NCBI RefSeq assembly: GCF_902826655.1 | Contig: NZ_CADEFR010000033.1 | Span: 1-39,131, forward strand | Reading direction: 5' to 3' | DNA from: an uncultured Methylibium sp. | Lineage (GTDB): Bacteria; Pseudomonadota; Gammaproteobacteria; Burkholderiales; Burkholderiaceae_C | DNA: 39,131 nt | Shown here: piece by piece, positions 9,235 through 29,430 of the stretch | Numbering within the stretch: position 1 is the stretch's first letter | Layout of the letters: each line of letters starts with the position of its first letter | The notes under the pieces: model-generated | What the model was told of the DNA's origin: nothing | What the model saw: the letters and a program-made list of their open reading frames with translations, nothing else | Database searches by the model: none | Position numbers and translations under genes: made by a program

Positions 9235-9597
9235 GGGGCCGACCTGGTTTCGACGTGGGTAACGAAGCAGTGCAGGGCATGCCGAGGCGCCTTTTCCTCG
9301 TTAATCCATTGGCAAATCCACAATCGCCAACGACAGCGATTACGCTCTGGCCGCTTAAGGCCTTGCGCGCTGCACCAACCTGCCGATAGGTTGGGTCGGG
9401 CAACCGACTGCAGTGTCATTCAAATCGGATCGCGTCGCGCCGGGTTACTTGGCGCGCCGTTAAAACCAAGGTGACTGGATGCGGGTCGGCCTGCCGGTCG
9501 GCTAAGCCCGCGTCGAGATCGAAATAGGCCGGCTACGCATGTAGAACTGTCTGTAGAGGACTTGCGGACGCGGGTTCGATTCCCGCCGGCTCCACCA
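9235..9597 (+). ncRNA. ssrA: Transfer-messenger RNA (tmRNA)
   Basis: 363 nt including an encoded CCA. The 5' end GGGGCCG pairs with 3' CGGCTCC to form the tRNA-like acceptor stem (one G-U), followed by ACCA. The T-arm GGGTTCGATTCCC is near the 3' end, and the 5' tract GACCTGGTTTCGACG is typical. The tag frame opens at GCC 9326 and reads ANDSDYALAA, then TAA at 9356-9358; with the charged Ala the added tag is AANDSDYALAA, ending in the LAA degron for ClpXP. It rescues stalled ribosomes together with SmpB. The 3' end of ssrA is a favourite integration site for mobile elements, and foreign genes start right after it here. Confidence 0.97.
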
Positions 9598-11536: not shown

Positions 11537-12013
11537 TCACCGGAACCGCAGGCGTTCGCGCTGCTCGTCCCATCGCAGCGGGTTGGCGCGTCGCCCGACG
11601 CTTTCCAACGTCAAGTGCGCAGCCACGCCAGTGGTGCAGGCTTCCACGATGTCCGGTGCCAATTGCGCCAATCGGGCGATCCGGCTTGCACGACCGAGAT
11701 CGAGTCCCTCTGCCTCGGCGATCTCGGTGATCGAACTGAACCGTCCGTCGTCCAGCAGGCGCTGCCAGTGGTGCGCGAGGCCGAGTGCCCGCATCAAGGG
11801 GGTGTCCTGCGCCATCTCGCGAACCTGCCGCTCACGGCGGGCCTCGTCCAGGAACTCCTGCGGCGCGTCGAACGGCGTGATGACCTGCTTCTTCAAACCC
11901 CTGCGCACCAACGTCCAGGGCAGGAAGGTTTCCATCTGCACGCCGCCAGCAGGCAGCGGCGTCTGATACGTCACTGGGTCGCCCCTGGCGTGGCCGCGAT
12001 GCTTCTTGCTCAC
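11537..12013 (-). CDS. Recombinase-operon accessory protein B with ParB-like HTH
   Basis: 158 aa, not assigned to a named family by me. It has METFLPWTLVRRGLKK near residue 27 and then WQRLLDDGRFSSITEIAEAE and IARLAQLAPDIVEA, which resemble the helix-turn-helix of ParB/KorB proteins. These same blocks, in the same order, occur in the neighbouring 123-aa protein, so the two are diverged duplicates. It starts with GTG (12013), overlapping the stop of that neighbour, behind a strong AGGAGGATG ribosome site. As the last gene of the recombinase operon it may be a DNA-binding helper or directionality factor; this is inference only. Confidence 0.8.
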   Translation of the reverse strand: MSKKHRGHARGDPVTYQTPLPAGGVQMETFLPWTLVRRGLKKQVITPFDAPQEFLDEARRERQVREMAQDTPLMRALGLAHHWQRLLDDGRFSSITEIAEAEGLDLGRASRIARLAQLAPDIVEACTTGVAAHLTLESVGRRANPLRWDEQRERLRFR

Positions 12014-12381
12014 ACATCCTCCTCAAAACTGGCCATGAGCTGGCGCTGGGCGTGCCAGTCCACCATCAGGCGGTTTCGCTGAAACCACATCAGCGTCAGC
12101 CGCCGTGGCTGCTTGCCTGCCATGAACTGCTCAATGATGTCGGGGGCCAGCAGGGCCAGGCGCAGCAGTTCGTTGACCACCGAGTGGTGCAGCTTCTCGG
12201 CGCGGGCGATGGCCGACCCGCTCTGCATCGCGCCGGTGTCCAGCAGGTGCTGCCAGTAGAAGGCCCGTGCCACACCGTCGAGCAGTGTCACGTCGTGGAT
12301 GTGCCGGTCGTCGGCAGCCACGCGTTGGACGCCCCGGCGGCGAAACGTTAGGGGCACAAAGGTTTCCATCGACTCGTCCAT
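12010..12381 (-). CDS. Recombinase-operon accessory protein A with ParB-like HTH
   Basis: 123 aa. METFVPLTFRRRGVQR at the N-terminus and WQHLLD, SAIARAEKL, LLRLALLAPDIIEQF and the final W..QRQL segment align with protein B. The middle is consistent with a ParB-type helix-turn-helix. It lacks the 26-residue N-terminal extension and an internal insert of protein B. Its ATG overlaps the recombinase stop by one base (TGATG), and its own stop overlaps the start of protein B, so all are translated as a unit. The strict linkage suggests it works with the recombinase. No catalytic motif seen. Confidence 0.82.
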   Translation of the reverse strand: MDESMETFVPLTFRRRGVQRVAADDRHIHDVTLLDGVARAFYWQHLLDTGAMQSGSAIARAEKLHHSVVNELLRLALLAPDIIEQFMAGKQPRRLTLMWFQRNRLMVDWHAQRQLMASFEEDV

Positions 12382-13769
12382 CAGGCTTCGACCTCCAGCA
12401 GTTCAGCACCAATGCTGTCCGGGGCGAACTCCTCGATGAGCGCGTTCCAACCTACCTCACGCCACTTCACCTTGATCCCCTGCACCTCGCCCGCGTGGAC
12501 GAGGTCGATGCGCTCGATCATCAGATTGGCGATGCGGTGGCGCTCGACCGGGAACAGTTGATCCCACACGTTGTTGAGGCGTCCCATCGCCATCACGGTG
12601 GTGGCCTCGTCGATCTGGGCCCCGTTGCGTTGAATGTGCCGCACCACCGACGCCACGGTCTCCGGGCTGGTCAGCACCGTGCGGATCTGGGCCACCACCG
12701 CCCCCTCGATCTCCAGCGCAGGCAGGCGCTCGTAGCCCTTGCCCGGCGCGCCGAACCGCGCTTCCGACTTGGACACGTAGTAGTGGTACTTGCGCCCGTT
12801 CTTGCGCGAGTAGGTCGGGTACATCCGCTCGCCCGAGGGTGCGTACAGCAGGCCGCGCAGCAACGCGTCGGTGCGCGACCTGATCTTGGTCTCGACCGAC
12901 CGGGTGTGGCCATCCTTGGCCAGCACCTCGTGAACCCGGCCCCACAGTCCTGGATCGATGATGGCCTGATGCACACCTGGGTACCAACTGCCCTTGTGCG
13001 ACAACTCTCCAAGGTAGATGCGGTTGCGCAGCAGCTTGTGCAGGTACTTCTTGTCGATGCGCGTGCCCGCCCGCGTCTGACCGTCCTGCGTCGTCCAGGC
13101 CTTGGTGGTGATGTCATCCAAAGTCAGGTTGGCAGCAATCTGGGTGGGCGAGCCGATGGTCAACATCTCCTCGAAGATGCGCCGCACCACCGCCGCCTCG
13201 GTTTCATTGATGACCAGCAGGCGGTTGTCGACGTCGTAGCCCAGGGGGGGCACGCCACCCATCCACATCCCCTTGCGCTTGCTGGCGGCTATCTTGTCGC
13301 GGATGCGCTCGCCGGTGACCTCGCGCTCAAACTGAGCGAAGGACAACAGGACGTTGAGCATCAGCCGACCCATCGAGGTGGTGGTGTTGAACTGCTGCGT
13401 GACCGACACGAACGACACGCCGTGGCGCTCAAACACCTCGACCATCTTGGAGAAGTCGGCAAGGCTACGCGTCAGGCGGTCGATCTTGTAGACCACCACG
13501 ATGTCGATCTGGCCGCGCTCGATGTCGGCCATCAGGCGCTTTAGCCCCGGCCGGTCCGTGTTGCCGCCGGAGAAGCCGGGGTCGTCGTAATCGTCGGCCA
13601 CCGGAATCCATCCTTCTGCGCGTTGGCTGGCGACGTAGGCGTGGCCAGCCTCCTTCTGCGCGTCGATGGAGTTGAATTCCTGGTCGAGTCGTTCATCCGA
13701 CGACACCCGGCAGTAGACGGCGCAACGTTTGCGTGCCTTGGGAGAGGCGATTTGGGTGGCGTCGCTCAT
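12381..13769 (-). CDS. Large serine recombinase
   Basis: 462 aa. The N-terminal resolvase domain contains VYCRVSSDE with the catalytic Ser at residues 23-24, DDPGFSGGNTDRPGL, VVYKIDRLTRSL and the SMGRLMLNVLLSFAQFERE helix. The central recombinase domain has SKRKGMWMGGVPPLGYDV and a cysteine-poor zinc-ribbon region (YPTYSRKNGRKYHYYVSK); the usual paired zinc cysteines are not obvious. Such enzymes join short att sites through a phosphoserine link and can integrate and excise phages and islands. I chose ATG 13769, which overlaps the DUF2924 stop by 4 bp; the much longer open frame upstream lies over DUF2924. It is the only integrase-type gene in the window and thus the probable mobility enzyme. 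Confidence 0.93.
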   Translation of the reverse strand: MSDATQIASPKARKRCAVYCRVSSDERLDQEFNSIDAQKEAGHAYVASQRAEGWIPVADDYDDPGFSGGNTDRPGLKRLMADIERGQIDIVVVYKIDRLTRSLADFSKMVEVFERHGVSFVSVTQQFNTTTSMGRLMLNVLLSFAQFEREVTGERIRDKIAASKRKGMWMGGVPPLGYDVDNRLLVINETEAAVVRRIFEEMLTIGSPTQIAANLTLDDITTKAWTTQDGQTRAGTRIDKKYLHKLLRNRIYLGELSHKGSWYPGVHQAIIDPGLWGRVHEVLAKDGHTRSVETKIRSRTDALLRGLLYAPSGERMYPTYSRKNGRKYHYYVSKSEARFGAPGKGYERLPALEIEGAVVAQIRTVLTSPETVASVVRHIQRNGAQIDEATTVMAMGRLNNVWDQLFPVERHRIANLMIERIDLVHAGEVQGIKVKWREVGWNALIEEFAPDSIGAELLEVEA

Positions 13770-14218
13770 TGCGCACCTGCCTTGCCGGTCAGGCCGAAGA
13801 ACAGTGGCCCCGACCAGTGCGTGCCGGTGATCTGCCGGGCCACGGCTGTCAGGCTCTTGAAGGTGCTGCCCTCGTACTCGAACAGACCTTCGGCGGTGAC
13901 CGCCACCTTGTGCTCGCGGTCGCCCCATTCGCGCAGCAGCACCGTGCCGGGCGCGAAGTTGGTGTCGCGCGGCCGTGCCCGCAGCTTGATCTTGGAATGC
14001 TTGGCACCGATGGCCTCCAGGCGCTGGCGCGTGTTGTGCGCCAGACCGCCGAAGGCTTCCTCCTGCATCTTGTAGGCGATGCGCGACTCGATGAAGACGC
14101 GGTTGGGGTTGATGGGGCGGCTGCTGAAGTACCGATCCCACACTGGCCACAACTCGGCGATGGGCAGGCTCGATAGCTCCGCGATCCGCGCGGCGACTGA
14201 TGCTTGTTTCTCGTTCAT
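13766..14218 (-). CDS. DUF2924 protein
   Basis: 150 aa. It shows the DUF2924 pattern: ELSSLPIAELWPVWDRYF near residue 15, the SRIAYKMQEEAFGGL helix, and a C-terminal beta-rich segment with PGTVLLREWGDREHKVAV and SLTAVARQITGTHWSG. The family is found next to large serine recombinases in prophages and islands and probably assists them, but no biochemical role is known to me. I chose ATG 14218 with AGGAG 9 nt upstream; the stop of the small upstream gene shares this ATG (TGATG). It ends in an ATGA overlap with the recombinase. Confidence 0.9.
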   Translation of the reverse strand: MNEKQASVAARIAELSSLPIAELWPVWDRYFSSRPINPNRVFIESRIAYKMQEEAFGGLAHNTRQRLEAIGAKHSKIKLRARPRDTNFAPGTVLLREWGDREHKVAVTAEGLFEYEGSTFKSLTAVARQITGTHWSGPLFFGLTGKAGAQ

Positions 14219-14409
14219 CACAAACTCTCCTGTTGATAGGGGGTTGTATGAACGCGCTGGTCGGGCAGGAAGCCAAGGCCAACTTCTCTCTGTTTTGGCG
14301 CTTCTGCGACGACGGTGCGGACGATGGCGGCCGCAAGGATGGCGGTGATTTCACCAGCGCGGGCGCTGGCGGACATCTCCGAGGGAGATGCGAGTTCGAG
14401 GTTCTTCAT
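14218..14409 (-). CDS. Small protein at the head of the recombinase operon
   Basis: 63 aa. The segment SARAGEITAILAAAIVRTVV is a likely amphipathic helix, and the tail LGFLPDQRVHTTP is well preserved in the leader repeats found elsewhere in this element. The ATG at 14409 has GGAG 7-10 nt upstream, and the stop overlaps the DUF2924 start by one base, so it fits the coupling pattern of the operon. Function unknown. The alternative is that only its 3' part matters, as a translated leader for DUF2924. Confidence 0.65.
   Translation of the reverse strand: MKNLELASPSEMSASARAGEITAILAAAIVRTVVAEAPKQREVGLGFLPDQRVHTTPYQQESL
14249..14280 (-). repeat. Leader repeat, copy A (before DUF2924)
   Basis: On the plus strand AACGCGCTGGTC (14251-14262), six bases, then GAAGCCAAG (14269-14277). 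The same arrangement with identical 6-base spacing occurs at 29802, 30814 and 31106, always just upstream of a minus-strand gene. Here it codes for the end of the 63-aa protein (LGFLPDQRVH). Confidence 0.8.
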
Positions 14410-14571
14410 GACGGCTCCGAGGAATTGCAACCGTCACAGATGATGTGCGCGATGTTCCGAAGCGGATGGCAATTCCGGGTAATCGGGCACACCTGGTGGC
14501 GTGGCCTCGATGCCCCGGCAGGCCTGTGGTGCCTGTCTGGCAGGGAACCGGATTGCGCGTTAACGAAACAG

Positions 14572-14600
14572 TTGACAGGCGCCGATCTGCTCGATACGAT
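14572..14600 (+). promoter_or_regulatory. Promoter of the XRE/ImmA operon
   Basis: A consensus -35 TTGACA (14572-14577) and a -10 TACGAT (14595-14600) stand 17 bp apart. The start would be at about 14607, 30 nt before the XRE gene and inside the operator-like sequence. GATTGCGCGTTAACG (14551-14565), made of the same half-sites as that operator, lies just upstream of the -35. Confidence 0.8.
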
Positions 14601-14608
14601 GGCGTCAA

Positions 14609-14626
14609 TTAACTAATCACGCAATT
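14609..14626 (+). promoter_or_regulatory. Operator-like site 1 (XRE/ImmA operon)
   Basis: TTAACTAATCACGCAATT matches 14 of 18 positions of the sequence at 15822-15839 in front of the next operon. It covers the predicted transcription start and lies within a CAATT/AATTG dyad (14606-14627). It is the best candidate binding site for the XRE protein encoded 10 bp downstream. Confidence 0.65.
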
Positions 14627-14636
14627 GGGTCACAAC

Positions 14637-14915
14637 ATGGCATTTGGTGCCTACATCAGACAGAAGAGGGAGGCGAAGGGCATTCAGATGAATGACTTCG
14701 CCCGGCAGCTGGACATCTCCCCTGCCTACTGGTCGCGCATAGAGCGCGACATCGAGAAGCCGCCCAAGGACGAGCTGATCCGCAAGGCGGCAGAAATCCT
14801 TGGCGAGAATGTCGACGACGCCTTTGTTGAGGCCAGCCGCCTTCCGCCAGACATGCGCGACGACGTGGGGGGCCTGGTACGGATGTATCGCAAGCAAGCG
14901 ACGGGGGACAAGTGA
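14637..14915 (+). CDS. XRE-family helix-turn-helix repressor
   Basis: 92 aa. Residues 1-62 form an XRE/Cro-type HTH (FGAYIRQKREAKG, MNDFARQLDISPAYWSRIERD, KPPKDELIRKAAEILG), and the acidic tail ends MYRKQATGDK. ATG 14637 is chosen because it gives the canonical start of the fold; a TTG at 14625 lies in frame upstream. The ribosome site is weak. The next gene begins on the base after its stop and encodes an ImmA/IrrE protease. In known pairs (ImmR/ImmA, DdrO/IrrE) the protease cleaves the repressor after a stress signal, which predicts that this protein silences its own and the following operon. Confidence 0.92.
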   Translation: MAFGAYIRQKREAKGIQMNDFARQLDISPAYWSRIERDIEKPPKDELIRKAAEILGENVDDAFVEASRLPPDMRDDVGGLVRMYRKQATGDK

Positions 14916-15767
14916 ATGCCGGTGTTGACTCTTGGCTACCGGCATTGCGACCGAAAACGCCCCAGCTACATCAAGAATTCCGAGATTGAGGGCATCGCCG
15001 TCTTGGCCCGCCAGCAACTGGTGGATGCTGCTGCCGATGCCATCTCGCTCGCCACCCTGAGCGCCATCTCCGGCCTGAAGATCAACGGCGTGGTCTTCGA
15101 CCTGTTCGTCGGCACCGGTGACGTCGTGCATGACGAGCGCGGGAACCCTGTCCTGGGCATCTGTGAGTACGATCCTGGCGTGCCGGACACCGCGATGGTG
15201 TCGGTGTCACCGGTTGGCGTGAACGCCAGCGAGGAGTTGGTACTGAGCACCCTCGGGCACGAGCTCGGCCACGCCATCTTCGATGCGCCAGGATGGATCG
15301 TGGATGCCAGCAAGGGGCCGGGTTTGTTCGATGAGCCCAGCGACGCGGCGCGGCGGGCCTACCGCACGACCACCCGTGACGTGGAGCACTTGGCGAAAGT
15401 CCAGCCCGTCGTCGAGGCGGCTGCGAGCCCCTCTCTGGCAATTCCAGGCCACACCACCAAGGAAGAATACTTCGCCGAGCTGCGTGCCAACGAGTTCATG
15501 GGGTCGTTGCTGGTGCCGCGCCAACGCCTGAATCTGGCGGTCGAAGAGTTGGCTCCGAAACACGGTGTGACGATCCACCGCAGCCCGTCGCTTGATCCCG
15601 ATTTGCCCGGCACCTGCCTTCACCTGACGGCTGATGGAGATATCGGGTTCTTCGACATCGAATGTTTGCAGAAGGCCGTGGCCAAGCGCTTCGGCGTCAA
15701 CCGACGCTTCATCCAGGTACGGATGGAGCGCTATGGTCTTCTAAAGCCGGGGGCCAAGATCGTCTGA
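14916..15767 (+). CDS. ImmA/IrrE-family metallopeptidase
   Basis: 283 aa. The zinc motif HELGH lies at residues 115-119 (STLGHELGHAIF), and a third ligand Glu is expected in the YFAELRANEFMGSLL helix near residue 190, where the family carries its downstream acidic ligand. An N-terminal segment of about 60 residues and a C-terminal domain (about 225-283, ending KRFGVNRRFIQVRMERYGLL) extend the core; the latter could sense or bind DNA. By analogy it should cleave the XRE repressor directly upstream. The genes are adjacent without a gap, and a strong terminator follows the stop. Confidence 0.9.
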   Translation: MPVLTLGYRHCDRKRPSYIKNSEIEGIAVLARQQLVDAAADAISLATLSAISGLKINGVVFDLFVGTGDVVHDERGNPVLGICEYDPGVPDTAMVSVSPVGVNASEELVLSTLGHELGHAIFDAPGWIVDASKGPGLFDEPSDAARRAYRTTTRDVEHLAKVQPVVEAAASPSLAIPGHTTKEEYFAELRANEFMGSLLVPRQRLNLAVEELAPKHGVTIHRSPSLDPDLPGTCLHLTADGDIGFFDIECLQKAVAKRFGVNRRFIQVRMERYGLLKPGAKIV

Positions 15768-15786
15768 TCAACGCCTTCATCTCGCC

Positions 15787-15810
15787 GCCGACCGCGTGTC
15801 GGCATTTTTT
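15787..15810 (+). terminator. Terminator after the XRE/ImmA operon
   Basis: GCCGAC (15787-15792) pairs with GTCGGC (15798-15803) around CGCGT, followed by A and six T. It separates the regulator pair from the next two genes, which have their own operator-like site. Confidence 0.88.
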
Positions 15811-15821
15811 GAACCGTTCAG

Positions 15822-15839
15822 TTAACCACTCGCGCAATC
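15822..15839 (+). promoter_or_regulatory. Operator-like site 2 (operon of the two unknown proteins)
   Basis: TTAACCACTCGCGCAATC, sharing TTAAC-A-TC-CGCAAT with the site at 14609-14626. A TTGAAC lies at 15809-15814 as a possible -35, but no good -10 box is visible at 17 bp; a TTTAGA further down is another weak candidate. The site lies 31 bp before the next ATG. Confidence 0.6.
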
Positions 15840-15869
15840 GCGCACTTCGTTTAGAAAAGGAAATTGCCT

Positions 15870-17306
15870 ATGCCAGCAGACGAACAGATCACCGCCCAGG
15901 AACACGACGAGTCGACTGCCGCGCAGCAGCAGTCCTCGAAGCAGGTGCGACCCCGTCAATCGGACGATGGCCCGGAAATCCTGCCGTGCATGGAGCACTT
16001 CGTCACCGTGGTGCGCAAAGCCAAGCGTCCCGGCCTCGCCTTGCTCCTGGTCGAACGTGCCAGCGCCACTTCGCTGCCGGAACTGGCAGCGCTGACGGAT
16101 GCGGCCAAAGGCATCCTCGCGGTGCAGTCCCGCAAGGCGATGTTCCACGCCGTCGCCAAACTTGGCTCGGACGTCCAGCAGCACATCGAGCGTGCGGCCG
16201 AGCGCGTGGTGCTGCTCGATGACGAATACGGCACGCAGGCCGTCCAATCCCTCCTTGACGACCAAGACGCCAGCGACGCTGCCGTCTTGGCCACGCCCAG
16301 TGACCGGTATAGCCGGGCCCTGCACCTCTGTCTGCGGCAGGATTTTCCGGAGGTCGGTGCCAAGCGCGATCAGCGCTTCGACAACGCCGAGCGCTTGCAG
16401 GTGATGCATCGCCAGTGGAAGAGCGAGAACTACTCCAGCCACTACCTCGGCCCGAAAGGCGTGGTGCCGAGCATTGATGCCGATGTTGAGGGTGTGTTGC
16501 GCGGGCGCATTTCGGCGCTGTTCCCGCAAGTGGCTTCTGACCAAATCCTCATCGAGCAGTTCACGCGCCGTGATCTTGCGCATGCCGACCGCTGCGGCGG
16601 CAAAGACACCGACGAGGTCGCGCCCGTGCTCTTGCACACCCTGACTGCAACTTTCAACGGATCGACGGCGCACTTCCGGCAGGTTGCCAACGGCGAGGTG
16701 GTCGAGCACGAAGAACCTGCAGCGATGTCGGCCAGCTTCTCGTGGGAGCCCGGCACCGGTGCGCTCGGTGTGTTCTGCGAAGACCGTGAGGTGCGCCGTG
16801 AACTGGCGACCATCTTCCGCGATGTCGTTTTGGCGTGCGACGGGGAGATCAACGACATGCCGATGCGCGAGTTCGACCTGTTCGGCTTCTCGACACCAGC
16901 GATGCTCAAGCGCATTGAGCAGGAGCGTGTGGCGGGCATTGAAAAAATCTCGATCCTGCAGATCAAAGTCGCCCGGCCCTTCGAGCAGCAAACCACCGAC
17001 GCCGCCAATGGGCGTGATCTGATCCAGCACCTGTCGAGCACGATGCTGATCGGCAAGGATCGGCGCGACACCCGCCAGATTTATCAGGTCGCCTACGACG
17101 ACTATGGCATCGACGACCTGACGGGTTACACGCTGGCGCAGGTGAAGCTGGTGTTCCGAATGGCCAAACAGCCGCACCGCAAGGCCCACAACGTTGCTGT
17201 CCAAATCACGTCGCCGAACGGCCTGAACGACAAGAGCAAGACCGAGGATGACCGCAAGCGCGTGCTGGAACAGCTCACGCGAATTGGGGTGCTCCGTGAG
17301 TTCTGA
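15870..17306 (+). CDS. Unrecognised 478-aa protein, candidate effector of the XRE/ImmA module
   Basis: 478 aa; I do not recognise a family. A charged, Gln-rich N-terminus of about 30 residues is probably disordered. The rest looks globular and soluble, without membrane helices or signal peptide. Distinct stretches are MEHFVTVVRKAKRPGLALLL, a helical AERVVLLDDEYGTQAVQSLL, a central LTATFNGSTAHFRQVANGEV, and a C-terminal DDYGIDDLTGYTLAQVKLVF. No Walker, nuclease or methyltransferase motif is evident. ATG 15870 has AAGGA about 8 nt upstream. The end overlaps the following gene by 11 bp. Regulation by the XRE/ImmA pair is inferred from the shared operator-like site. Confidence 0.85.
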   Translation: MPADEQITAQEHDESTAAQQQSSKQVRPRQSDDGPEILPCMEHFVTVVRKAKRPGLALLLVERASATSLPELAALTDAAKGILAVQSRKAMFHAVAKLGSDVQQHIERAAERVVLLDDEYGTQAVQSLLDDQDASDAAVLATPSDRYSRALHLCLRQDFPEVGAKRDQRFDNAERLQVMHRQWKSENYSSHYLGPKGVVPSIDADVEGVLRGRISALFPQVASDQILIEQFTRRDLAHADRCGGKDTDEVAPVLLHTLTATFNGSTAHFRQVANGEVVEHEEPAAMSASFSWEPGTGALGVFCEDREVRRELATIFRDVVLACDGEINDMPMREFDLFGFSTPAMLKRIEQERVAGIEKISILQIKVARPFEQQTTDAANGRDLIQHLSSTMLIGKDRRDTRQIYQVAYDDYGIDDLTGYTLAQVKLVFRMAKQPHRKAHNVAVQITSPNGLNDKSKTEDDRKRVLEQLTRIGVLREF

Positions 17307-18252
17307 TGACGCTACCGCGAAGTCGGCACATCTGAGCTTTCTGGCAGCGCTGGAGCGGCTGCCCCGGGTCGATTCCCGCGTCAGGGCGGCCGAGCTCGGG
17401 CGATGCAGACCAACGTTTCTGCAGCGACGATGGATCACGGAAGAGGACTACCTCACACATCTGATGGTGCCCGTCCTGGATTCTGAGCAGGAAGTCGAGG
17501 TTGAGATCGATCACGACGCGGCGGTGTACCGGTACCGCAGTCCCCAGCAGCGGTCACGAACGGTTGAGCGACCTCTTGCCGACATCGCGCTGTATACCTT
17601 CCAAGTGGATGCGTGGCTCGCCGACTTGGCATCCTTGATCGGCATCGAAGATCGACGACGATCCGACCGTCGACATCGCGTGCCGGGCCACCTGTGGCAC
17701 CTCGGGGAAGTACGAATCGCTTGCACACACGACTTTGCCCCGGTGTTCGTTGCCAGAGCGTGGGAGCGTGCTCCTGTTGCCGCGATGACCTCGGTGTTGA
17801 GCGACCCAATCTGGTCGCGTGGCGGCATCGTATTGCGGCATCAGCGAGATCCCGTTGATCTGCCCCGTGACCATGTCATGCGCGTGCTGGACGAGTTCGT
17901 TCGCGTGGACGACGGCCAGGACGTTTTCGACGCGAGCGCATTCGACAGGGTGCTGCGTGGCTACGTCACGCCCAGCGGTGCGCCAGAGCCGGTTGAGTTC
18001 TTCCAAGGCAATCGACTGAAGCTGCCCCACTTCACCGAGTCGCGTGAGCTGTCTGCGGAGCGCGCCAAGATCGTCAAGCAGATGTGGAGTGCCGACGGGA
18101 AGAACGCGCCAGAGGTGTCCTGGGCCGAGGTCAACAGGATCGCCAATACCGGCTACCAGTCGTTCGATGACGCCTTCGGCGGAAAGGCTGAACGCGAGGA
18201 CGTGATCGCATTGGTCAAGCGCGGCAAATACCGACTGCGACGCAACACATAA
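17296..18252 (+). CDS. Unrecognised 318-aa protein, partner of the preceding gene
   Basis: 318 aa. No family recognised. It is rich in Arg and Asp. Notable segments are RCRPTFLQRRWITEEDYLTHL (about 35-55), EIDHDAAVYRYRSP, an IALYTFQVDAWLADLASLIG helix, RVPGHLWHLGEVRIACTHDF, and a C-terminal basic tail (KRGKYRLRRNT). The conserved look of the His/Trp-rich GHLWHLGE stretch suggests an active or binding site, but I can assign none. I chose GTG 17296, overlapping the preceding stop by 11 bp with GGGGTG just upstream; the longer frame would run inside the neighbour. Coupling implies the two proteins are made in fixed ratio. Confidence 0.82.
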   Translation: MSSDDATAKSAHLSFLAALERLPRVDSRVRAAELGRCRPTFLQRRWITEEDYLTHLMVPVLDSEQEVEVEIDHDAAVYRYRSPQQRSRTVERPLADIALYTFQVDAWLADLASLIGIEDRRRSDRRHRVPGHLWHLGEVRIACTHDFAPVFVARAWERAPVAAMTSVLSDPIWSRGGIVLRHQRDPVDLPRDHVMRVLDEFVRVDDGQDVFDASAFDRVLRGYVTPSGAPEPVEFFQGNRLKLPHFTESRELSAERAKIVKQMWSADGKNAPEVSWAEVNRIANTGYQSFDDAFGGKAEREDVIALVKRGKYRLRRNT

Positions 18253-18275
18253 ACGCGCCCATAAATCAAACCAGA

Positions 18276-18337
18276 CACGGGCCATAAACCCGTGCGGAGA
18301 CTTCGATGTGCCCATTTCATCTAGGAGGCACATCGAA
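18276..18337 (+). promoter_or_regulatory. Tandem hairpins, the second sequestering the ribosome site
   Basis: CACGGG/CCCGTG (18276-18281, 18289-18294) forms a first stem. TTCGATGTGCC (18302-18312) and GGCACATCGAA (18327-18337) form a perfect 11-bp second stem with a 14-nt loop. The AGGAGG ribosome site at 18323-18328 runs from loop into stem, and the stem ends on the base before the ATG. No T run follows, so this looks like translational control rather than a terminator. Repeated CATAAA sequences precede it. Confidence 0.75.
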
Positions 18338-18601
18338 ATGCAAACTCAAGTTCCATCAATCGAATCCGGTCGGAATCCCCGCCGGATGAATCCCGGCGGT
18401 GCAGCCTGCATCGCGCTCGACGAAAACGAGCTCGCCATCCGCTGGGGGCTCTCCGTCAAGACGCTGCGCCGCTGGCGTCAAGAGCAGCTCGGCCCGATCT
18501 ACTGCAAGCTCGGTCGCCGGGTCACCTACCTCCTGCACGAAATCGAAGCCTTCGAGCGCCGCGTCTCGCGCTACTCGAGCTTCACTCGTGCGTACCAGTG
18601 A
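18338..18601 (+). CDS. Small helix-turn-helix protein (AlpA/excisionase-like)
   Basis: 87 aa. Residues of about 32-75 form a winged-helix/MerR-like HTH: NELAIRWGLSVKTLRRWR, LGPIYCKLGRRVTYLLHEIE, of the kind seen in AlpA, excisionases and phage DNA-binding proteins. It heads the replication operon and could be an excisionase, or an activator of the genes behind it. ATG 18338 follows a consensus AGGAGG that lies partly in an inverted repeat, so translation may be switched. An in-frame GTG at 18308 lies within the hairpin and is less likely. Confidence 0.82.
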   Translation: MQTQVPSIESGRNPRRMNPGGAACIALDENELAIRWGLSVKTLRRWRQEQLGPIYCKLGRRVTYLLHEIEAFERRVSRYSSFTRAYQ

Positions 18602-18612
18602 GGAGGACGGCC

Positions 18613-19095
18613 ATGAGCGATCTGACCATCTTCCCCGTCGACATCGCTGAGATGTCTGTGAGCCAACTGGCCGCGCTGCCGGCCGAGCAGAAGCGCGAGG
18701 TCGACAAGAACCTTGATGCTGCCATCGACTGGCTAAAGAAGGCTCGCACCAAGTTCGATGCGGCGCTGGAACAGTGCTACGGCGAGCAGGCCCGTGTCGC
18801 ACTGCGTGAATCCGGCCGTGACTTTGGTACCGCCCACATCAGCGACGGCCCGATGCACATCAAGTTCGAGCTGCCCAAAAAGGTCAGCTGGAACCAGAAA
18901 CAGTTGGGCGAAATCGCCGAGCGCATCGTGGCCTCGGGCGAGAAGGTCGAGGGCTACCTCGACGTCAAGCTCTCCGTGTCCGAGTCCCGGTACATCAACT
19001 GGCCGCCTGCGTTGCAGCAGCAGTTCGCGGCCGCCCGCACGGTCGATTCCGGCAAGCCGTCCTTCACCTTGAGCACCGACGGGGGTGAGGCATGA
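18613..19095 (+). CDS. Conserved phage-type protein of unknown function
   Basis: 160 aa. An N-terminal helical stretch (SVSQLAALPAEQKREVDKNL, then AIDWLKKARTKFDAALEQ) suggests a coiled coil, followed by a beta-rich C-terminal half (MHIKFELPKKVSWNQKQL, GYLDVKLSVSESRYINWPPA). I do not recognise a named family. AGGAGG before the ATG is strong, and the stop overlaps the ATPase start by 4 bp. Position at the front of a recombination cluster suggests a role with the AAA ATPase or the SSB-like protein, but this is not shown. Confidence 0.82.
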   Translation: MSDLTIFPVDIAEMSVSQLAALPAEQKREVDKNLDAAIDWLKKARTKFDAALEQCYGEQARVALRESGRDFGTAHISDGPMHIKFELPKKVSWNQKQLGEIAERIVASGEKVEGYLDVKLSVSESRYINWPPALQQQFAAARTVDSGKPSFTLSTDGGEA

Positions 19096-19940
19096 AAAAG
19101 CTCCCCATCGTGTCCGCCATCGAACGCATGGCCGAGCGCAAGGGCGTGAAGCTGCTGATGCTGGGCAAGTCCGGCATCGGCAAGACGTCCCGGCTCAAAG
19201 ACCTCGACCCCGCCACCACGCTGTTCCTTGACATCGAGGCAGGCGACTTGGCGGTCGCCGACTGGCCGGGCGACACCATCCGCCCGGCGTCCTGGCCCGA
19301 GAGCCGCGACTTCTTCGTGTTCCTCGCAGGCCCGGACAAGTCGCTGCCGCCGGAGAGCGCGTTCTCGCAGGCGCACTACGACCACGTCATCGAGAAGTTT
19401 GGCGATGCGACGCAGCTTGGTCGCTACCAGACCTTCTTCCTTGACTCGATCACGCAACTGTCTCGCCAGTGCTTTGCGTGGTGCAAGACGCAGCCCGGGG
19501 CGGTCAGTGATCGTTCCGGCAAGCCCGATCTGCGCGCGGCCTACGGGCTGCTCGGCCAGGAAATGATCGGCGCGTTGACCCACCTGCAGCACGCCCGTGG
19601 CAAGAACGTGGTGTTCGTGGCGATCCTCGATGAGCGACTGGATGACTTCAATCGCAAGGTGTTCGTCCCGCAGATCGAAGGCAGCAAGACCAGCCTGGAG
19701 CTGCCCGGCATCGTCGATGAGGTCGTGACGCTGGCCGAGATCAAGGCCGAGGACGGTAGCTCCTACCGCGCCTTCGTCACGCACACCGTCAATCCCTACG
19801 GCTTCCCGGCCAAAGACCGCAGCGGTCGTCTCGACCTGCTGGAGCCGCCGCATCTCGGCGCGCTGATCGCCAAGTGCGCGGGCGCAGTTCCCACGCCCGC
19901 CAGCGCCGCCAACCCCGCACACATCGAATCTCAGGAGTAA
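19092..19940 (+). CDS. Phage AAA-type ATP-binding protein (AAA_24-like)
   Basis: 282 aa. RecA-like P-loop: LLMLGKSGIGKTSRLKDL with Walker A at residues 25-33, TLFLDIEAGD as the early acidic strand, TFFLDSITQLSRQCF as Walker B near 117-122, and VVFVAILDER as a later strand. Proteins of this kind are encoded next to SSB and nuclease genes in many phages and are thought to help recombination or replication, comparable to Sak4-type annealing ATPases. It starts by ATGA overlap with the previous gene. Exact role inferred from family and neighbours. Confidence 0.85.
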   Translation: MKKLPIVSAIERMAERKGVKLLMLGKSGIGKTSRLKDLDPATTLFLDIEAGDLAVADWPGDTIRPASWPESRDFFVFLAGPDKSLPPESAFSQAHYDHVIEKFGDATQLGRYQTFFLDSITQLSRQCFAWCKTQPGAVSDRSGKPDLRAAYGLLGQEMIGALTHLQHARGKNVVFVAILDERLDDFNRKVFVPQIEGSKTSLELPGIVDEVVTLAEIKAEDGSSYRAFVTHTVNPYGFPAKDRSGRLDLLEPPHLGALIAKCAGAVPTPASAANPAHIESQE

Positions 19941-26752: not shown

Positions 26753-28162
26753 CTGAACACGCTCAACGTCGAGTACCGTAAGGTCGAGGCGCTGATCCCC
26801 TACGCCCGCAATCCACGCACGCACACTGACGAGCAGGTGGCCAAGATCGCCGCCAGCATCGTCGAGTACGGCTGGACGAATCCGGTGCTGGTGGACGGCG
26901 ACAACGGGATCATCGCGGGCCACGGTCGTCTGGCCGCCGCGCGCAAGCTCGGGCTGGATCAGGTGCCGGTCATAGAACTGGCGCACCTCTCGCCCACGCA
27001 GAAGCGTGCCTACGTCATCTCTGACAACCGGCTGGCGCTCGACGCCGGTTGGAACGAGGAGATGCTGGCGCTGGAGATGGCCGAGCTGTCCGAGGCCGGG
27101 TACGACCTTGCGTTGACCGGTTTCGAGGATGCTGAGATCGAGGCCTTGCTCGCTGACGAGGTGGAAACCGATGACGCCGACCAGGAGGCAGATGCCGACG
27201 AACCGGACGCTGCTGATGATGTGCCGGATGCCCCTGTGGTGCCGGTGTCCCGCACCGGCGATGTCTGGGCCATCGGCTCCCACCGTCTGATCTGTGGCGA
27301 TGCCACCGACCCGACAGCAGTCGCCACGCTGATGCAGGGCGATGCGGCCCGGCTGTGCTTCACCTCACCGCCTTACGGCAACCAGCGTGACTACACCAGC
27401 GGCGGTGTCAAGGATTGGGATGGCCTGATGCGCGGCGTATTTGCCAACGTGCCAACGGCCGACGACGGCCAGGTGCTGGTCAACCTCGGGTTGATCCACC
27501 GCGACAACGAAGTCATCCCGTATTGGGATGCGTGGCTTGGCTGGATGCGCACGCAGGGTTGGCGGCGCTTCGCGTGGTACGTCTGGGATCAAGGACCGGG
27601 GATGCCCGGAGACTGGGCTGGTCGCTTTGCGCCGAGTTTCGAGTTCGTATTTCACTTCAACCGCGCCAGCCGCAAGCCCAACAAGATCGTGCCCTGCAAG
27701 CACGCGGGCCAGGAGTCGCACCTGCGTGCCGATGGCTCGTCCACGGCGATGCGCGGCAAGGACGGCGAGGTCGGCGGCTGGACGCACAAGGGGCAGCCGA
27801 CGCAGGACACCCGGATTCCCGACTCGGTGATCCGCGTGATGCGTCACAAGGGCAAGATCGGTCAGGACATCGACCACCCGGCTGTGTTCCCGGTGGCGTT
27901 GCCGGAGTTCGTGATCGAGGCCTACACGGACGCAGGCGACATCGTGTTCGAACCTTTTGGCGGCAGCGGCACGACGATGCTGGCCGCGCAGCGCACCGGT
28001 CGTGTGTGTCGCAGCGTTGAGATCGCGCCGGAGTACGTGGACGTCGCCATCAAGCGCTTCCAGCAGAACCACTCCGGCGTGCCCGTCACGTTGCTGGCCA
28101 CCGGCCAATCCTTCGATGACGTCGCCAGTGAACGTCTGGCCACCACGGAGGTAGCGCAATGA
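26753..28162 (+). CDS. ParB-domain / DNA methyltransferase fusion 1 (SPPY type)
   Basis: 469 aa from the start chosen here. The ParB/sulfiredoxin-like domain has ALIPYARNPRTHTDEQVAKI, GIIAGHGRLAAARKLGL and RAYVISDNRLALDAGW. An acidic linker follows. The methyltransferase has catalytic FTSPPYG (SPPY about 205-208) and the SAM motif FEPFGGSGTTMLAA, in beta-class order. SPPY is common in N4-cytosine enzymes. No ATG, GTG or TTG begins the conserved N-terminus; CTG 26753 with GAGGA 7 nt upstream is the best start. A GTG at 26837 would delete 28 conserved residues. Solitary phage methyltransferases of this type usually protect phage DNA from host restriction. It is coupled to fusion 2 by ATGA. Confidence 0.9.
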   Translation: MNTLNVEYRKVEALIPYARNPRTHTDEQVAKIAASIVEYGWTNPVLVDGDNGIIAGHGRLAAARKLGLDQVPVIELAHLSPTQKRAYVISDNRLALDAGWNEEMLALEMAELSEAGYDLALTGFEDAEIEALLADEVETDDADQEADADEPDAADDVPDAPVVPVSRTGDVWAIGSHRLICGDATDPTAVATLMQGDAARLCFTSPPYGNQRDYTSGGVKDWDGLMRGVFANVPTADDGQVLVNLGLIHRDNEVIPYWDAWLGWMRTQGWRRFAWYVWDQGPGMPGDWAGRFAPSFEFVFHFNRASRKPNKIVPCKHAGQESHLRADGSSTAMRGKDGEVGGWTHKGQPTQDTRIPDSVIRVMRHKGKIGQDIDHPAVFPVALPEFVIEAYTDAGDIVFEPFGGSGTTMLAAQRTGRVCRSVEIAPEYVDVAIKRFQQNHSGVPVTLLATGQSFDDVASERLATTEVAQ

Positions 28163-29430
28163 CCGCCTCGTGGTTTGCCGACAAGATCGAGCAGTGGCCG
28201 ACCGCCAAACTGCTGCCCTACGCCCGCAATGCGCGCACCCACTCGGACGATCAGGTGGCGCAGATCGCTGCCTCGATTGCCGAGTTCGGATTCACCAATC
28301 CGATCCTCGCCGGTAGCGATGGTGTCATCGTGGCCGGGCACGGACGGCTTGCTGCTGCGCAGAAGCTCGGGCTGGCGGTGGTGCCGGTGGTGGTGCTCGA
28401 TCATCTGAGCGCGACGCAGCGCCGGGCCCTGGTGATCGCGGACAACCGCATCGCCGAGAACGCGGGCTGGGACGACGCGATGCTGCGCATCGAGATCGCG
28501 TCCCTTCAGGATGACGACTTCGACGTGTCGCTGACCGGCTTCGATGCCGATGCACTTGCGGAATTGATGGCGGGCGACGAGCCGGATGGCGAAGGCGAAA
28601 CCGATGACGATGCGGTGCCCGAGGTGTCAGAGACACCCGTCTCGCGCCCGGGCGATGTCTGGCTGCTCGGTGGCCACCGTCTGCTGTGTGGCGACTCCAC
28701 TGTGGCTGAGAGCTACGACCGGGTTCTCGATGGCGAGCCGGTGGATATGGTCTTCACCGACCCGCCGTACAACGTGAACTACGCCAACAGCGCCAAGGAC
28801 AAGATGCGCGGCAAGGATCGCGCGATCCTGAACGACAACCTCGGCGACGGCTTCTACGACTTCCTGCTGGCGGCGTTGACGCCGACCATCGGGAACTGCC
28901 GGGGCGGCATCTACGTGGCGATGTCGTCCAGCGAACTGGATGTGCTGCAGGCAGCGTTCCGTGCCGCCGGTGGAAAGTGGTCGACGTTCATCATCTGGGC
29001 CAAGAACACCTTCACGCTGGGCCGGGCCGACTACCAGCGCCAGTACGAGCCAATCTTGTACGGATGGCCCGAGGGCGCGCAGCGTCACTGGTGCGGCGAC
29101 CGCGACCAGGGTGACGTCTGGAACATCAAGAAGCCGCAGAAGAACGACCTGCATCCGACGATGAAGCCGGTGGAGTTGGTCGAGCGCGCGATACGCAATT
29201 CGAGCCGACCGGGCAACGTGGTGCTCGACCCGTTCGGGGGCTCCGGCACGACGCTGATCGCCGCCGAAAAGTCAGGGCGGCTGGCACGGCTGATCGAACT
29301 CGACCCTAAGTACGTGGACGTGATCGTGCGGCGCTGGCAGGAATGGGCTGGCAAGCAAGCCACCCGCGAGTCGGATGGCGCGCTGTTCGATGATCAGGCG
29401 GCGAGCGACTCCTCGTTGATCTCGCAGTGA
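28159..29430 (+). CDS. ParB-domain / DNA methyltransferase fusion 2 (DPPY type)
   Basis: 423 aa. Same architecture as the upstream gene: LLPYARNARTHSDDQVAQIA, VIVAGHGRLAAAQKLGL and LVIADNRIAENAGWDDAML, acidic linker, then MVFTDPPYNVNY (DPPY 201-204) and LDPFGGSGTTLIAAEKSGR. DPPY suggests N6-adenine methylation, so the two tandem enzymes may modify different bases. The N-terminal domains are clearly homologous, while the methyltransferase parts differ strongly, suggesting domain shuffling rather than plain duplication. The start is an ATGA overlap. The 3' end overlaps the convergent small gene by 37 bp. No restriction endonuclease is nearby. Confidence 0.93.
   Translation: MTASWFADKIEQWPTAKLLPYARNARTHSDDQVAQIAASIAEFGFTNPILAGSDGVIVAGHGRLAAAQKLGLAVVPVVVLDHLSATQRRALVIADNRIAENAGWDDAMLRIEIASLQDDDFDVSLTGFDADALAELMAGDEPDGEGETDDDAVPEVSETPVSRPGDVWLLGGHRLLCGDSTVAESYDRVLDGEPVDMVFTDPPYNVNYANSAKDKMRGKDRAILNDNLGDGFYDFLLAALTPTIGNCRGGIYVAMSSSELDVLQAAFRAAGGKWSTFIIWAKNTFTLGRADYQRQYEPILYGWPEGAQRHWCGDRDQGDVWNIKKPQKNDLHPTMKPVELVERAIRNSSRPGNVVLDPFGGSGTTLIAAEKSGRLARLIELDPKYVDVIVRRWQEWAGKQATRESDGALFDDQAASDSSLISQ

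What the first reader, a model, noticed from the sequence alone, without database searches (positions are those of the whole stretch)
14551..18252. Candidate undescribed system: XRE repressor / ImmA protease controlling two large unknown proteins
Four genes stand together: XRE regulator, adjacent ImmA/IrrE protease, terminator, then an operon of a 478-aa and a 318-aa protein that I cannot assign. The two operons each carry TTAAC-(6 nt)-CGCAAT like sequences (14609-14626 and 15822-15839, 14 of 18 identical), the first covering the promoter start. In ImmR/ImmA and DdrO/IrrE pairs the protease removes the repressor on stress. Here the module would switch on the two unknown proteins, which have no obvious virion or replication role. 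They lie at the accessory edge of a prophage, as many defence or superinfection genes do. An anti-phage, DNA-damage or abortive function is inference.
Basis: partly seen in the sequence, partly recalled or inferred. Interest (0 to 1): 0.82.

Follow-up and report, generated by a model that had tools for sequence, protein, structure and literature searches.

The report
Damage-switched two-protein prophage module
A prophage carries a stress-type genetic switch (a repressor plus a protease likely to cut it) beside two unnamed proteins that form one fused protein in related phages; they look like a distant cousin of the lambda phage "Rex" exclusion genes and are widespread but unassigned.

Summary
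XRE (92 aa), ImmA (283 aa), a terminator, then ORF3 (478 aa) and ORF4 (318 aa) are real genes under purifying selection. The shared site is real: [AG]TTAACN5[AG]CGCAA occurs twice in the window, and over the window plus 121 related loci 188 of 190 matches lie just upstream of XRE or ORF3. All four genes occur together in 59 of 66 distinct relatives with room. ORF3 and ORF4 have no significant match in Pfam, PHROGs, NCBIfam or PADLOC.

ORF3 and ORF4 are two halves of one protein: sister prophages, including named phage AcaML1, encode a ~750-aa fusion. In 30 wider loci the pair lies near an exchangeable stress-type repressor: XRE+ImmA 20, LexA 5, LexA-UmuDC-RecA 2, WYL 2, none found 1. Family members lacking the pair mostly carry QatC-like genes (12 of 18), once GmrSD. 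ORF3's model weakly resembles RdgC and kinetochore N chains, as reported for lambda RexA; ORF4 has an apparent winged helix and, unlike RexB, no membrane helix.

Most likely: a DNA-damage-gated, Rex-like DNA-binding complex at the prophage switch. Whether it excludes phages or steers induction is open. Damage sensing, cleavage, DNA binding and defence are inferred. New variant of a known kind.

The parts
14553..14564 (+). TTGCGCGTTAAC element just upstream of the XRE -35 box; possible extra operator half-sites
   Evidence: TTGCGCGTT in 40 of 68 distinct XRE upstream sequences; one match in the window
14572..14600 (+). sigma-70-like promoter of XRE-ImmA (TTGACA-17-TACGAT)
   Evidence: similar boxes in 63 of 68 distinct XRE upstream sequences
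14608..14626 (+). operator copy 1, covering the expected XRE transcription start
14637..14915 (+). XRE repressor, 92 aa, HTH_3-type
   Evidence: Pfam HTH_31 9.6e-11; PADLOC HTH_VI 1.1e-7 and capH 7e-6; ClgR and SinR in PDB, 1.7e-5 and 1.7e-4
14916..15767 (+). ImmA/IrrE (M78)-like metalloprotease, 283 aa
   Evidence: weak Pfam M78 0.0028; HEXXH and E-x-R-A-N-E-F block kept in 12 of 12 aligned sequences
15787..15803 (+). intrinsic terminator after ImmA
   Evidence: stem plus T-run in 63 of 63 distinct gaps
15821..15839 (+). operator copy 2, in front of ORF3
15870..17306 (+). ORF3, 478 aa, unassigned family; N-terminal helical domain plus alpha+beta regions with weak RdgC-like fold matches
17296..18252 (+). 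ORF4, 318 aa, unassigned family, overlaps ORF3; conserved LWHLG block and apparent C-terminal winged helix (read from alignment and model); no membrane helix by hydropathy
18302..18337 (+). hairpin with 11-bp arms over the ribosome-binding site of the excisionase-like gene that follows; boundary of the module
12381..14221 (-). context: DUF2924 protein (13766-14221) and large serine recombinase (12381 to about 13766), divergent from the module
18338..19940 (+). context: excisionase-like gene, phrog_2480 protein and AAA_24-like ATPase that follow ORF4
   Evidence: phrog_66 1.8e-6, phrog_2480 4.2e-36; the AAA_24 Pfam label is from the relative L127, matched to the window gene

Best explanation
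The four genes are a self-contained, DNA-damage-gated module at the lysogeny-switch locus of a serine-integrase prophage family. XRE binds the operator at its own promoter and its copy in front of ORF3. ImmA, activated by single-stranded DNA as in CapP and PprI/IrrE, cleaves XRE, and ORF3-ORF4 rise. ORF3 and ORF4 act as one unit (one protein in relatives): a DNA-binding complex built on an RdgC/RexA-type fold plus a winged helix. Like lambda RexA beside CI, it acts next to the repressor on the lysogeny switch and/or excludes superinfecting phage. Shown by sequence: gene order, conserved shared operators, natural fusion, exchangeable stress-type repressors, purifying selection. Inferred: XRE binding, ssDNA-triggered cleavage, complex formation, DNA binding, Rex-like role. 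The regulatory logic is about 0.75 likely; the Rex-like role of ORF3-ORF4 about 0.45.
For: Operators confined to the two places, 188 of 190 matches and the other two also before ORF3. XRE is an HTH_3 protein with a secondary capH match, 7e-6; ImmA keeps the protease motifs in 12 of 12. All four genes in 59 of 66 distinct loci with room. ORF3-ORF4 fusions in sister prophages: residues 9-416 = ORF3 (hhalign 1e-21), 428-727 = ORF4 (7e-13), and in phage AcaML1 Gp6. Regulators at 30 wider loci: XRE+ImmA 20, LexA 5, LexA-UmuD-UmuC-RecA 2, WYL 2 (adjacent in L197; 3.7 kb upstream behind a kinase-like gene in L177), none found 1; one or two representatives of each label were confirmed in Pfam. Foldseek for ORF3: RdgC 2owl first (E 1.8e-3, prob 0.87), six inner-kinetochore N chains in the top 12 (prob 0.69-0.92), and two viral 'recombination-associated proteins' (1.5e-4, 3.2e-4); RexA's reported structural relatives include RdgC, IML3 and CHL4 (PMC11077077, passages). 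Order repressor - first protein - partner as in lambda cI-rexA-rexB.
Against: The fold match is weak: no PDB hit below 0.001, query TM-scores 0.14-0.23 for the RdgC and N-chain hits, model pTM 0.53, and unrelated SAMHD1 chains rank 7-10. No sequence relation to RexA (hhalign probability 0.3%), and RexA (8TWQ, in the PDB sequence copy) is not among the 50 PDB hits shown of 504. ORF4 is not a membrane protein like RexB. XRE's best PADLOC match is a generic HTH model, not capH. No ImmA match in four loci (L097 and L098 from Xanthomonas genomes, viral contigs L055 and L058) that keep XRE, ORF3 and ORF4. No promoter found before ORF3. No phage-exclusion data exist here.
Confidence: 0.5

Rival explanations
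1. A new anti-phage immune effector pair under a CapH/CapP-type controller, unrelated to Rex: phage infection exposes ssDNA, ImmA cuts XRE, and ORF3-ORF4 then block the phage or kill the cell.
For: CapH+CapP, CapW and CapK+CapS are described as DNA-damage controllers of adjacent immune operons (PMC13373217, passages); ORF3-ORF4 sit with XRE+ImmA, WYL and LexA types. Elements of the same family without the pair carry a QatC-like gene (PADLOC QatC 3.5e-57; 12 of 18 distinct loci) or XRE-ImmA with a LOTUS gene (3 of 18, one with GmrSD between). A distant pair on a Tenderia plasmid precedes Multi_ubiq, JAB-like and ThiF genes.
Against: Almost confined to one family of elements; no PADLOC match; no obvious catalytic motif among the invariant residues, as I read; the multi-ubiquitin link is one plasmid, and none of 9 other Multi_ubiq regions (one only 3.4 kb) has the pair.
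Confidence: 0.3
2. Ordinary core phage early genes: XRE is the lysogeny repressor, and ORF3-ORF4 are the first genes of the lytic operon, serving phage DNA metabolism.
For: In the window the pair is co-directional with the excisionase-like, primase and other early genes; the pair or fusion is in 50 of 51 distinct loci with the divergent layout, the other being a deletion remnant; proteins named RdgC-like occur in phages.
Against: Orientation flips: in L174, L178 and the L216/AcaML1 type the unit runs with the integrase. 18 of 69 distinct loci of the same family lack it. XRE is the most conserved of the four (median identity to the window 80% against 64, 66, 63), whereas immunity repressors usually diversify (recalled). 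The following excisionase-like gene has its own hairpin in several layouts.
Confidence: 0.25
3. A toxin-antitoxin or addiction module in which ORF3-ORF4 are the toxin or its scaffold and XRE-ImmA the regulated antitoxin arm.
For: Fused relatives follow a PIN_3 gene and an HTH_17 gene (L216) or a fused XRE-ImmA and a gene that looks PIN-like by eye (L203); Xre-COG2856 operons with PIN or RelE toxins, and a possible three-component system, were predicted before (PMC2701414, passages).
Against: The window form has no PIN gene next to it; ORF3 and ORF4 show no known toxin domain; ORF3-ORF4 are kept in four loci without an ImmA match.
Confidence: 0.1

Closest known systems
lambda cI-rexA-rexB and the Pseudomonas putida RexAB-type system (PMC11077077, PMC12894663)
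   Same: Two-gene unit beside and downstream of the phage repressor; the first protein's best fold matches (RdgC, kinetochore N chains) fall in the set reported for RexA; prophage-borne.
   Different: No sequence similarity to RexA; ORF3 is longer (478 aa against 279) with an extra helical domain; ORF4 is soluble with an apparent winged helix, not a four-helix membrane protein; natural ORF3-ORF4 fusions; XRE-ImmA in place of CI.
CapH+CapP, ImmR/ImmA and DdrO/PprI repressor-protease pairs
   Same: Small HTH repressor directly followed by an HEXXH M78-like protease, operator at its own promoter, placed in front of the controlled genes.
   Different: The neighbouring genes are not CBASS, ICE or Deinococcus repair genes; ssDNA activation and cleavage untested; ImmA is too diverged for a Pfam-cut-off or PDB match.
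Acidithiobacillus phage AcaML1 Gp6-Gp8
   Same: Gp6 (751 aa) is a fused ORF3-ORF4 relative beside serine recombinase genes; the paper's table gives attB 'srrA' (PMC3826726), which I take as ssrA, the tmRNA gene, also present in the window.
   Different: Led by a gene annotated excisionase (Gp8, 153 aa) and a 190-aa protein (Gp7) in the positions of the HTH_17 and PIN genes of L216 (not tested here), transcribed with the integrase.
Xre-COG2856(-PIN) mobile stress-response systems (PMC2701414)
   Same: Predicted stress systems with a protease-controlled Xre repressor, common in prophages.
   Different: The third component there is PIN or RelE; here a new two-part family.

Membership tests
CapH+CapP type controller | Small XRE/HTH repressor specifically matching CapH | tested here: inconclusive
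   PADLOC capH E 7e-6 over residues 1-85, but the generic HTH_VI model scores better, 1.1e-7
CapH+CapP type controller | Adjacent HEXXH metalloprotease of the IrrE/CapP fold | tested here: inconclusive
   HEXXH and second motif in 12 of 12, but capP only 0.007, M78 below cut-off, no PDB match up to E 1
CapH+CapP type controller | Operator-like site at own promoter and at the neighbouring operon | tested here: met
   188 of 190 pattern matches at the two places; binding itself not tested
CapH+CapP type controller | ssDNA-stimulated cleavage of the repressor | not testable with these tools
   needs purified proteins
RexA/RexB exclusion system | RexA sequence homology | tested here: not met
   hhalign of A3 with lambda RexA: probability 0.3%, E 0.21
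RexA/RexB exclusion system | RdgC/RexA two-domain fold | tested here: inconclusive
   weak RdgC and inner-kinetochore N chain hits; two viral proteins named recombination-associated
RexA/RexB exclusion system | Location beside the prophage repressor | tested here: met
   beside the candidate repressor; that XRE is the prophage's repressor is inferred
RexA/RexB exclusion system | Membrane-protein partner (RexB) | tested here: not met
   maximum 19-residue Kyte-Doolittle mean 1.27 in ORF4, 1.08 in ORF3
RexA/RexB exclusion system | Excludes other phages | not testable with these tools
   needs plaque assays
Known anti-phage systems in PADLOC 2.0.0 | Match of ORF3, ORF4 or their fusion to a system component | tested here: not met
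   no family at E up to 1 for ORF3/ORF4 and up to 0.1 for three fusions

The most novel reading that the evidence does not exclude
ORF3-ORF4 define a new family of repressor-linked effector proteins, made as two chains or one 750-aa chain, that prophages across Pseudomonadota couple to whichever DNA-damage repressor is at hand (XRE-ImmA, LexA, LexA-UmuDC-RecA, WYL), sometimes with PIN genes. It would be a second, independently built 'Rex' that links phage exclusion to the lysogeny switch.
Probability: 0.35. Interest if true: 0.85.

Novelty: new variant of a known kind. Interest (0 to 1): 0.62.

Why it matters
ORF3 relatives were found in 28 of 398 sampled genomes of the phylum (20 genera, E up to 0.01), the window's pair has no significant match in four protein libraries, and the family is tied to DNA-damage-type repressors of several unrelated kinds. 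If the Rex-like reading is right, it would show that coupling an RdgC/RexA-type DNA-binding protein to the prophage repressor exists in a second, widespread form, and would make the old question of what Rex does (exclusion or switch control) testable with a soluble partner instead of a membrane one.

Tried and rejected
Multi-ubiquitin pathway: the Tenderia plasmid pair (hhalign 2e-14 and 2e-7 to the ORF3 and ORF4 families) precedes Multi_ubiq, JAB-like (weak, 0.0054) and ThiF genes. Multi_ubiq was found in 9 of 299 genomes; none of the 9 regions fetched (one is 3.4 kb) has the pair. Treated as one unconfirmed case.

Direct database assignment: Pfam, PADLOC, PHROGs, NCBIfam (best for ORF3 a PHROG of unknown function at 0.014), PHROGs over 15 ORF4 relatives (best 0.063), PDB sequences with A1, A2, A3 (best 0.44, 0.064, 0.35). 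Foldseek of ORF4 against PDB: best E 0.3. tblastn of ORF3 and of its L127 relative in 50,697 phage records: none; ORF4 alone was not searched there. ORF3 in plasmids: Tenderia only; ORF4 in plasmids: none; the Tenderia ORF3 relative in viral contigs: none confirmed. The L203 fusion found three AcaML1 records in phages and one short Shinella match in plasmids.

Roseicitreum plasmid hit (E 6e-3 with the Tenderia protein; 5.8e-7 with the ORF3 profile): an ORF3-like part running into what looks by eye like a peptidase M15 end, no ORF4 detected; taken as a relict.

Genome searches: the narrow ORF4 profile matched 2 of 274 genomes of the class, the window's own included; the broad ORF3 profile 28 of 398 of the phylum, the window's own included. 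I fetched 30 regions from 24 of these genomes, so some come from one genome or genus and are not independent; three genomes with weak or partial hits (G345, G579, G598) and a few partial places in others were not fetched. ORF4 was not detected in 3 of the 30 (contigs L183 and L198 end there; L197 does not).

The 7 of 66 distinct loci with room that lack the full set: 2 with ORF3 only, 2 XRE+ImmA+ORF3, 2 ORF3+ORF4, 1 XRE+ORF3+ORF4.

Sampling limits: the AAA_24 bait kept the best 80 of 544 loci, so the 82 loci are close relatives; deduplication to 69 is by shared 600-base words. 'PIN-like' for the 173-aa gene is by eye (no Pfam match). LexA, UmuD, UmuC, RecA, WYL, XRE and M78 labels at the wider loci come from similarity to one member each or by eye, with ten proteins checked in Pfam; the histidine-kinase label in L177 is by eye.


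Full report
What is there. XRE (14637-14915, 92 aa) and ImmA (14916-15767, 283 aa) follow a sigma-70-like promoter (14572-14600); a terminator (15787-15803) follows ImmA; ORF3 (15870-17306, 478 aa) and ORF4 (17296-18252, 318 aa) overlap by 11 bases including the ORF3 stop. XRE is a standard HTH_3/HTH_31 protein whose PADLOC matches are a generic HTH model (1.1e-7) and capH (7e-6), with weaker ones below; ImmA is a diverged M78-like protease, below the Pfam cut-off, that keeps its zinc motif in 12 of 12 aligned sequences. ORF3 and ORF4 have no significant match in Pfam, PHROGs, NCBIfam or PADLOC. The module lies between a divergent DUF2924/large serine recombinase cluster and the early genes of a prophage (excisionase-like, AAA_24-like, primase, then methyltransferase/ParB-type genes, terminase and portal); a tmRNA gene lies at 9235-9597.

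The shared sites are real. The pattern [AG]TTAACN5[AG]CGCAA occurs exactly twice in the window, at the two places named. Over the window and 121 related loci (1.36 Mb; several contigs counted more than once) it occurs 190 times: 91 upstream of XRE, 97 upstream of ORF3, and two more that lie 29 and 43 bases before ORF3 starts in loci whose ORF3 match begins late. Among distinct upstream sequences it is in 57 of 68 for XRE and 55 of 63 for ORF3. The eight ORF3 misses form a divergent group with a palindromic TTGCGCG/CGCGCAA site in that gap. This makes a common DNA-binding protein for both units very likely; XRE is the natural candidate because copy 1 covers its own expected start. No promoter-like sequence was found before ORF3, while the terminator after ImmA is present in 63 of 63 distinct gaps; so expression may come from read-through, with copy 2 acting as a roadblock. 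This is inference.

Conservation. Scans of viral contigs with ORF3 and ORF4 gave 85 loci and one scan of genome contigs gave 36, whose record titles name, among others, Ramlibacter, Rhodoferax, Xanthomonas, Stenotrophomonas and Nitrospira. They reduce to 83 distinct loci; of the 66 with room on both sides 59 have all four genes. Four loci (L097 and L098 from Xanthomonas genomes, viral contigs L055 and L058) show no ImmA match but keep XRE, ORF3 and ORF4, and operator 2 was read directly in L055 and L058; another Xanthomonas MAG (L099) has ImmA. The four genes evolve under purifying selection (dN/dS 0.04-0.28 in six comparisons), and XRE is the most conserved (median identity to the window 80% against 64, 66 and 63% for ImmA, ORF3 and ORF4).

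Wider family. A distant element (L127; hhalign 6e-19 and 3.5e-14 to the ORF3 and ORF4 families) has a fused XRE-ImmA protein (HTH_3 6.7e-13, M78 8.8e-15) in front of the pair and a divergent DUF2924/serine recombinase cluster beyond it. A profile including it found ORF3 in 28 of 398 genomes of the phylum, 20 genera. In the 30 regions fetched from 24 genomes the neighbouring regulator was XRE+ImmA of at least three sequence types in 20, a LexA-like repressor in 5, LexA-UmuD-UmuC with RecA in 2, a WYL protein in 2 (adjacent in L197; in L177 3.7 kb upstream, behind a kinase-like gene), and none found in 1. Representatives of these labels are confirmed by Pfam: M78 7.7e-16 and 2.7e-8, S24/LexA 2.9e-32 and 3.4e-23, IMS 5.6e-34, RecA 1.5e-135, WYL 5e-19 and 1.1e-17. 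ORF4 was detected beside ORF3 in 27 of 30. At least one DUF2924, recombinase or early gene of this element family was seen in 24 of 30; the other 6 are contigs of 3.4-6.3 kb.

Fusion and swapping. With AAA_24 and DUF2924 baits 82 loci spanning both ends of the slot (69 distinct) were classified. Distinct loci: 31 XRE+ImmA+ORF3+ORF4; 11 fused XRE-ImmA + PIN-like gene + a single ~750-aa protein; 6 HTH_17 gene + PIN_3 gene + the single protein; 1 with the split pair and the PIN-like gene; 1 single protein + nuclease; 1 deletion remnant (L212: ORF3 gone, ORF4 cut); and 18 without the pair. Those 18 have the recombinase turned the other way, and beside it stand a QatC-like gene with a 263-aa partner (12), XRE-ImmA with a LOTUS protein, once with GmrSD (3), a nuclease only (1) or nothing recognised (2). 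The single protein aligns with ORF3 over residues 9-416 and with ORF4 over 428-727 (hhalign of six fusions, 1e-21 and 7e-13), so ORF3 and ORF4 are parts of one functional unit. The temperate Acidithiobacillus phage AcaML1 encodes it as Gp6 (27% identity to the L203 fusion over 97%, E 1e-56); the table in PMC3826726 gives its attB as 'srrA' (passages read), which I take as ssrA, the tmRNA gene.

What ORF3 and ORF4 may be. The ORF3 model (23 sequences, mean pLDDT 79, pTM 0.53) has a helical N-terminal domain and two alpha+beta regions. Its best PDB match is E. coli RdgC (E 1.8e-3, probability 0.87), followed by the N chain of inner-kinetochore structures (six of the top 12, E 0.011-0.052, probabilities 0.69-0.92; that this chain is CENP-N/Chl4 is recalled); SAMHD1 chains rank 7-10 with probabilities 0.20-0.33. 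Two of the six viral matches below 0.001 are named recombination-associated protein; the other four are uncharacterised or unnamed. None is strong alone. They match, however, the set that the lambda RexA structure paper reports for RexA: RdgC, and the kinetochore subunits IML3 and CHL4 (PMC11077077, passages read). RexA sits with RexB beside the lambda repressor; a P. putida prophage RexAB pair downstream of a CI-like repressor is reported as a two-component phage immunity system (PMC12894663, abstract and passages). ORF3 shows no sequence relation to RexA and ORF4 is not a membrane protein, so this is a resemblance in position and, tentatively, in fold, not membership. ORF4 (mean pLDDT 86.5) has no PDB match below E 0.3; its C-terminal winged helix is read from the alignment and secondary structure.

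Mechanism proposed. In CapH+CapP and PprI-DdrO, ssDNA activates the protease, which cuts the repressor (PMC13373217 and PMC10904395, passages read). By analogy XRE holds down its own promoter and ORF3-ORF4 until DNA damage. The exchange of XRE-ImmA for LexA or LexA-UmuDC-RecA next to the same pair supports damage gating independently. Whether the product then biases the prophage toward induction, excludes a second phage, or both, cannot be decided from sequence: near-confinement to one family of elements speaks for a phage function, while orientation flips, absence from part of the family, and QatC-like or GmrSD genes in those members speak for a portable protective module.

Noticed in passing
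window 18302-18340: Eleven-base inverted repeat (TTCGATGTGCC...GGCACATCGAA) over the ribosome-binding site of the excisionase-like gene; in relatives both arms change together (for example TTCAATGTGCC/GGCACATTGAA and TGCGATGTGCC/GGCACATCGCA), and different hairpins stand there in other layouts. Looks like a conserved translational or operator control element.
   Followed up: partly
window 18253-18300: CCATAAAYC-like direct repeats between ORF4 and the excisionase-like gene, with variant sequences in relatives; possible binding sites.
   Followed up: no
L194 397-6518 and L200 6149-15257: Elements with LexA, UmuD, UmuC, ORF3, ORF4 and RecA clustered (with an XRE gene in L194; L200 has extra sequence between UmuC pieces): an element-borne SOS cassette.
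   Followed up: partly
L257 234-4344: XRE-ImmA-GmrSD-LOTUS genes in a row: a known type IV restriction gene apparently under an XRE-ImmA pair.
   Followed up: partly
L223 1302-4197 and 11 other distinct loci: A 704-aa QatC/QueC-like gene (PADLOC QatC 3.5e-57) with an unassigned 263-aa partner next to a nuclease and DUF2924; QatA and QatD were not looked for.
   Followed up: no
L123 5605-10286: ORF3/ORF4 relatives directly upstream of Multi_ubiq, JAB-like and ThiF genes on a Candidatus Tenderia plasmid.
   Followed up: partly
window 26837-29430: Two adjacent genes both matching the same DNA methyltransferase/ParB-type family (phrog_498), a tandem pair.
   Followed up: no
window 11537-12381: Two adjacent small genes both matching phrog_14161 (recombinase) behind the large serine recombinase; AcaML1 annotates a recombinase large and a small subunit side by side.
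   Followed up: no
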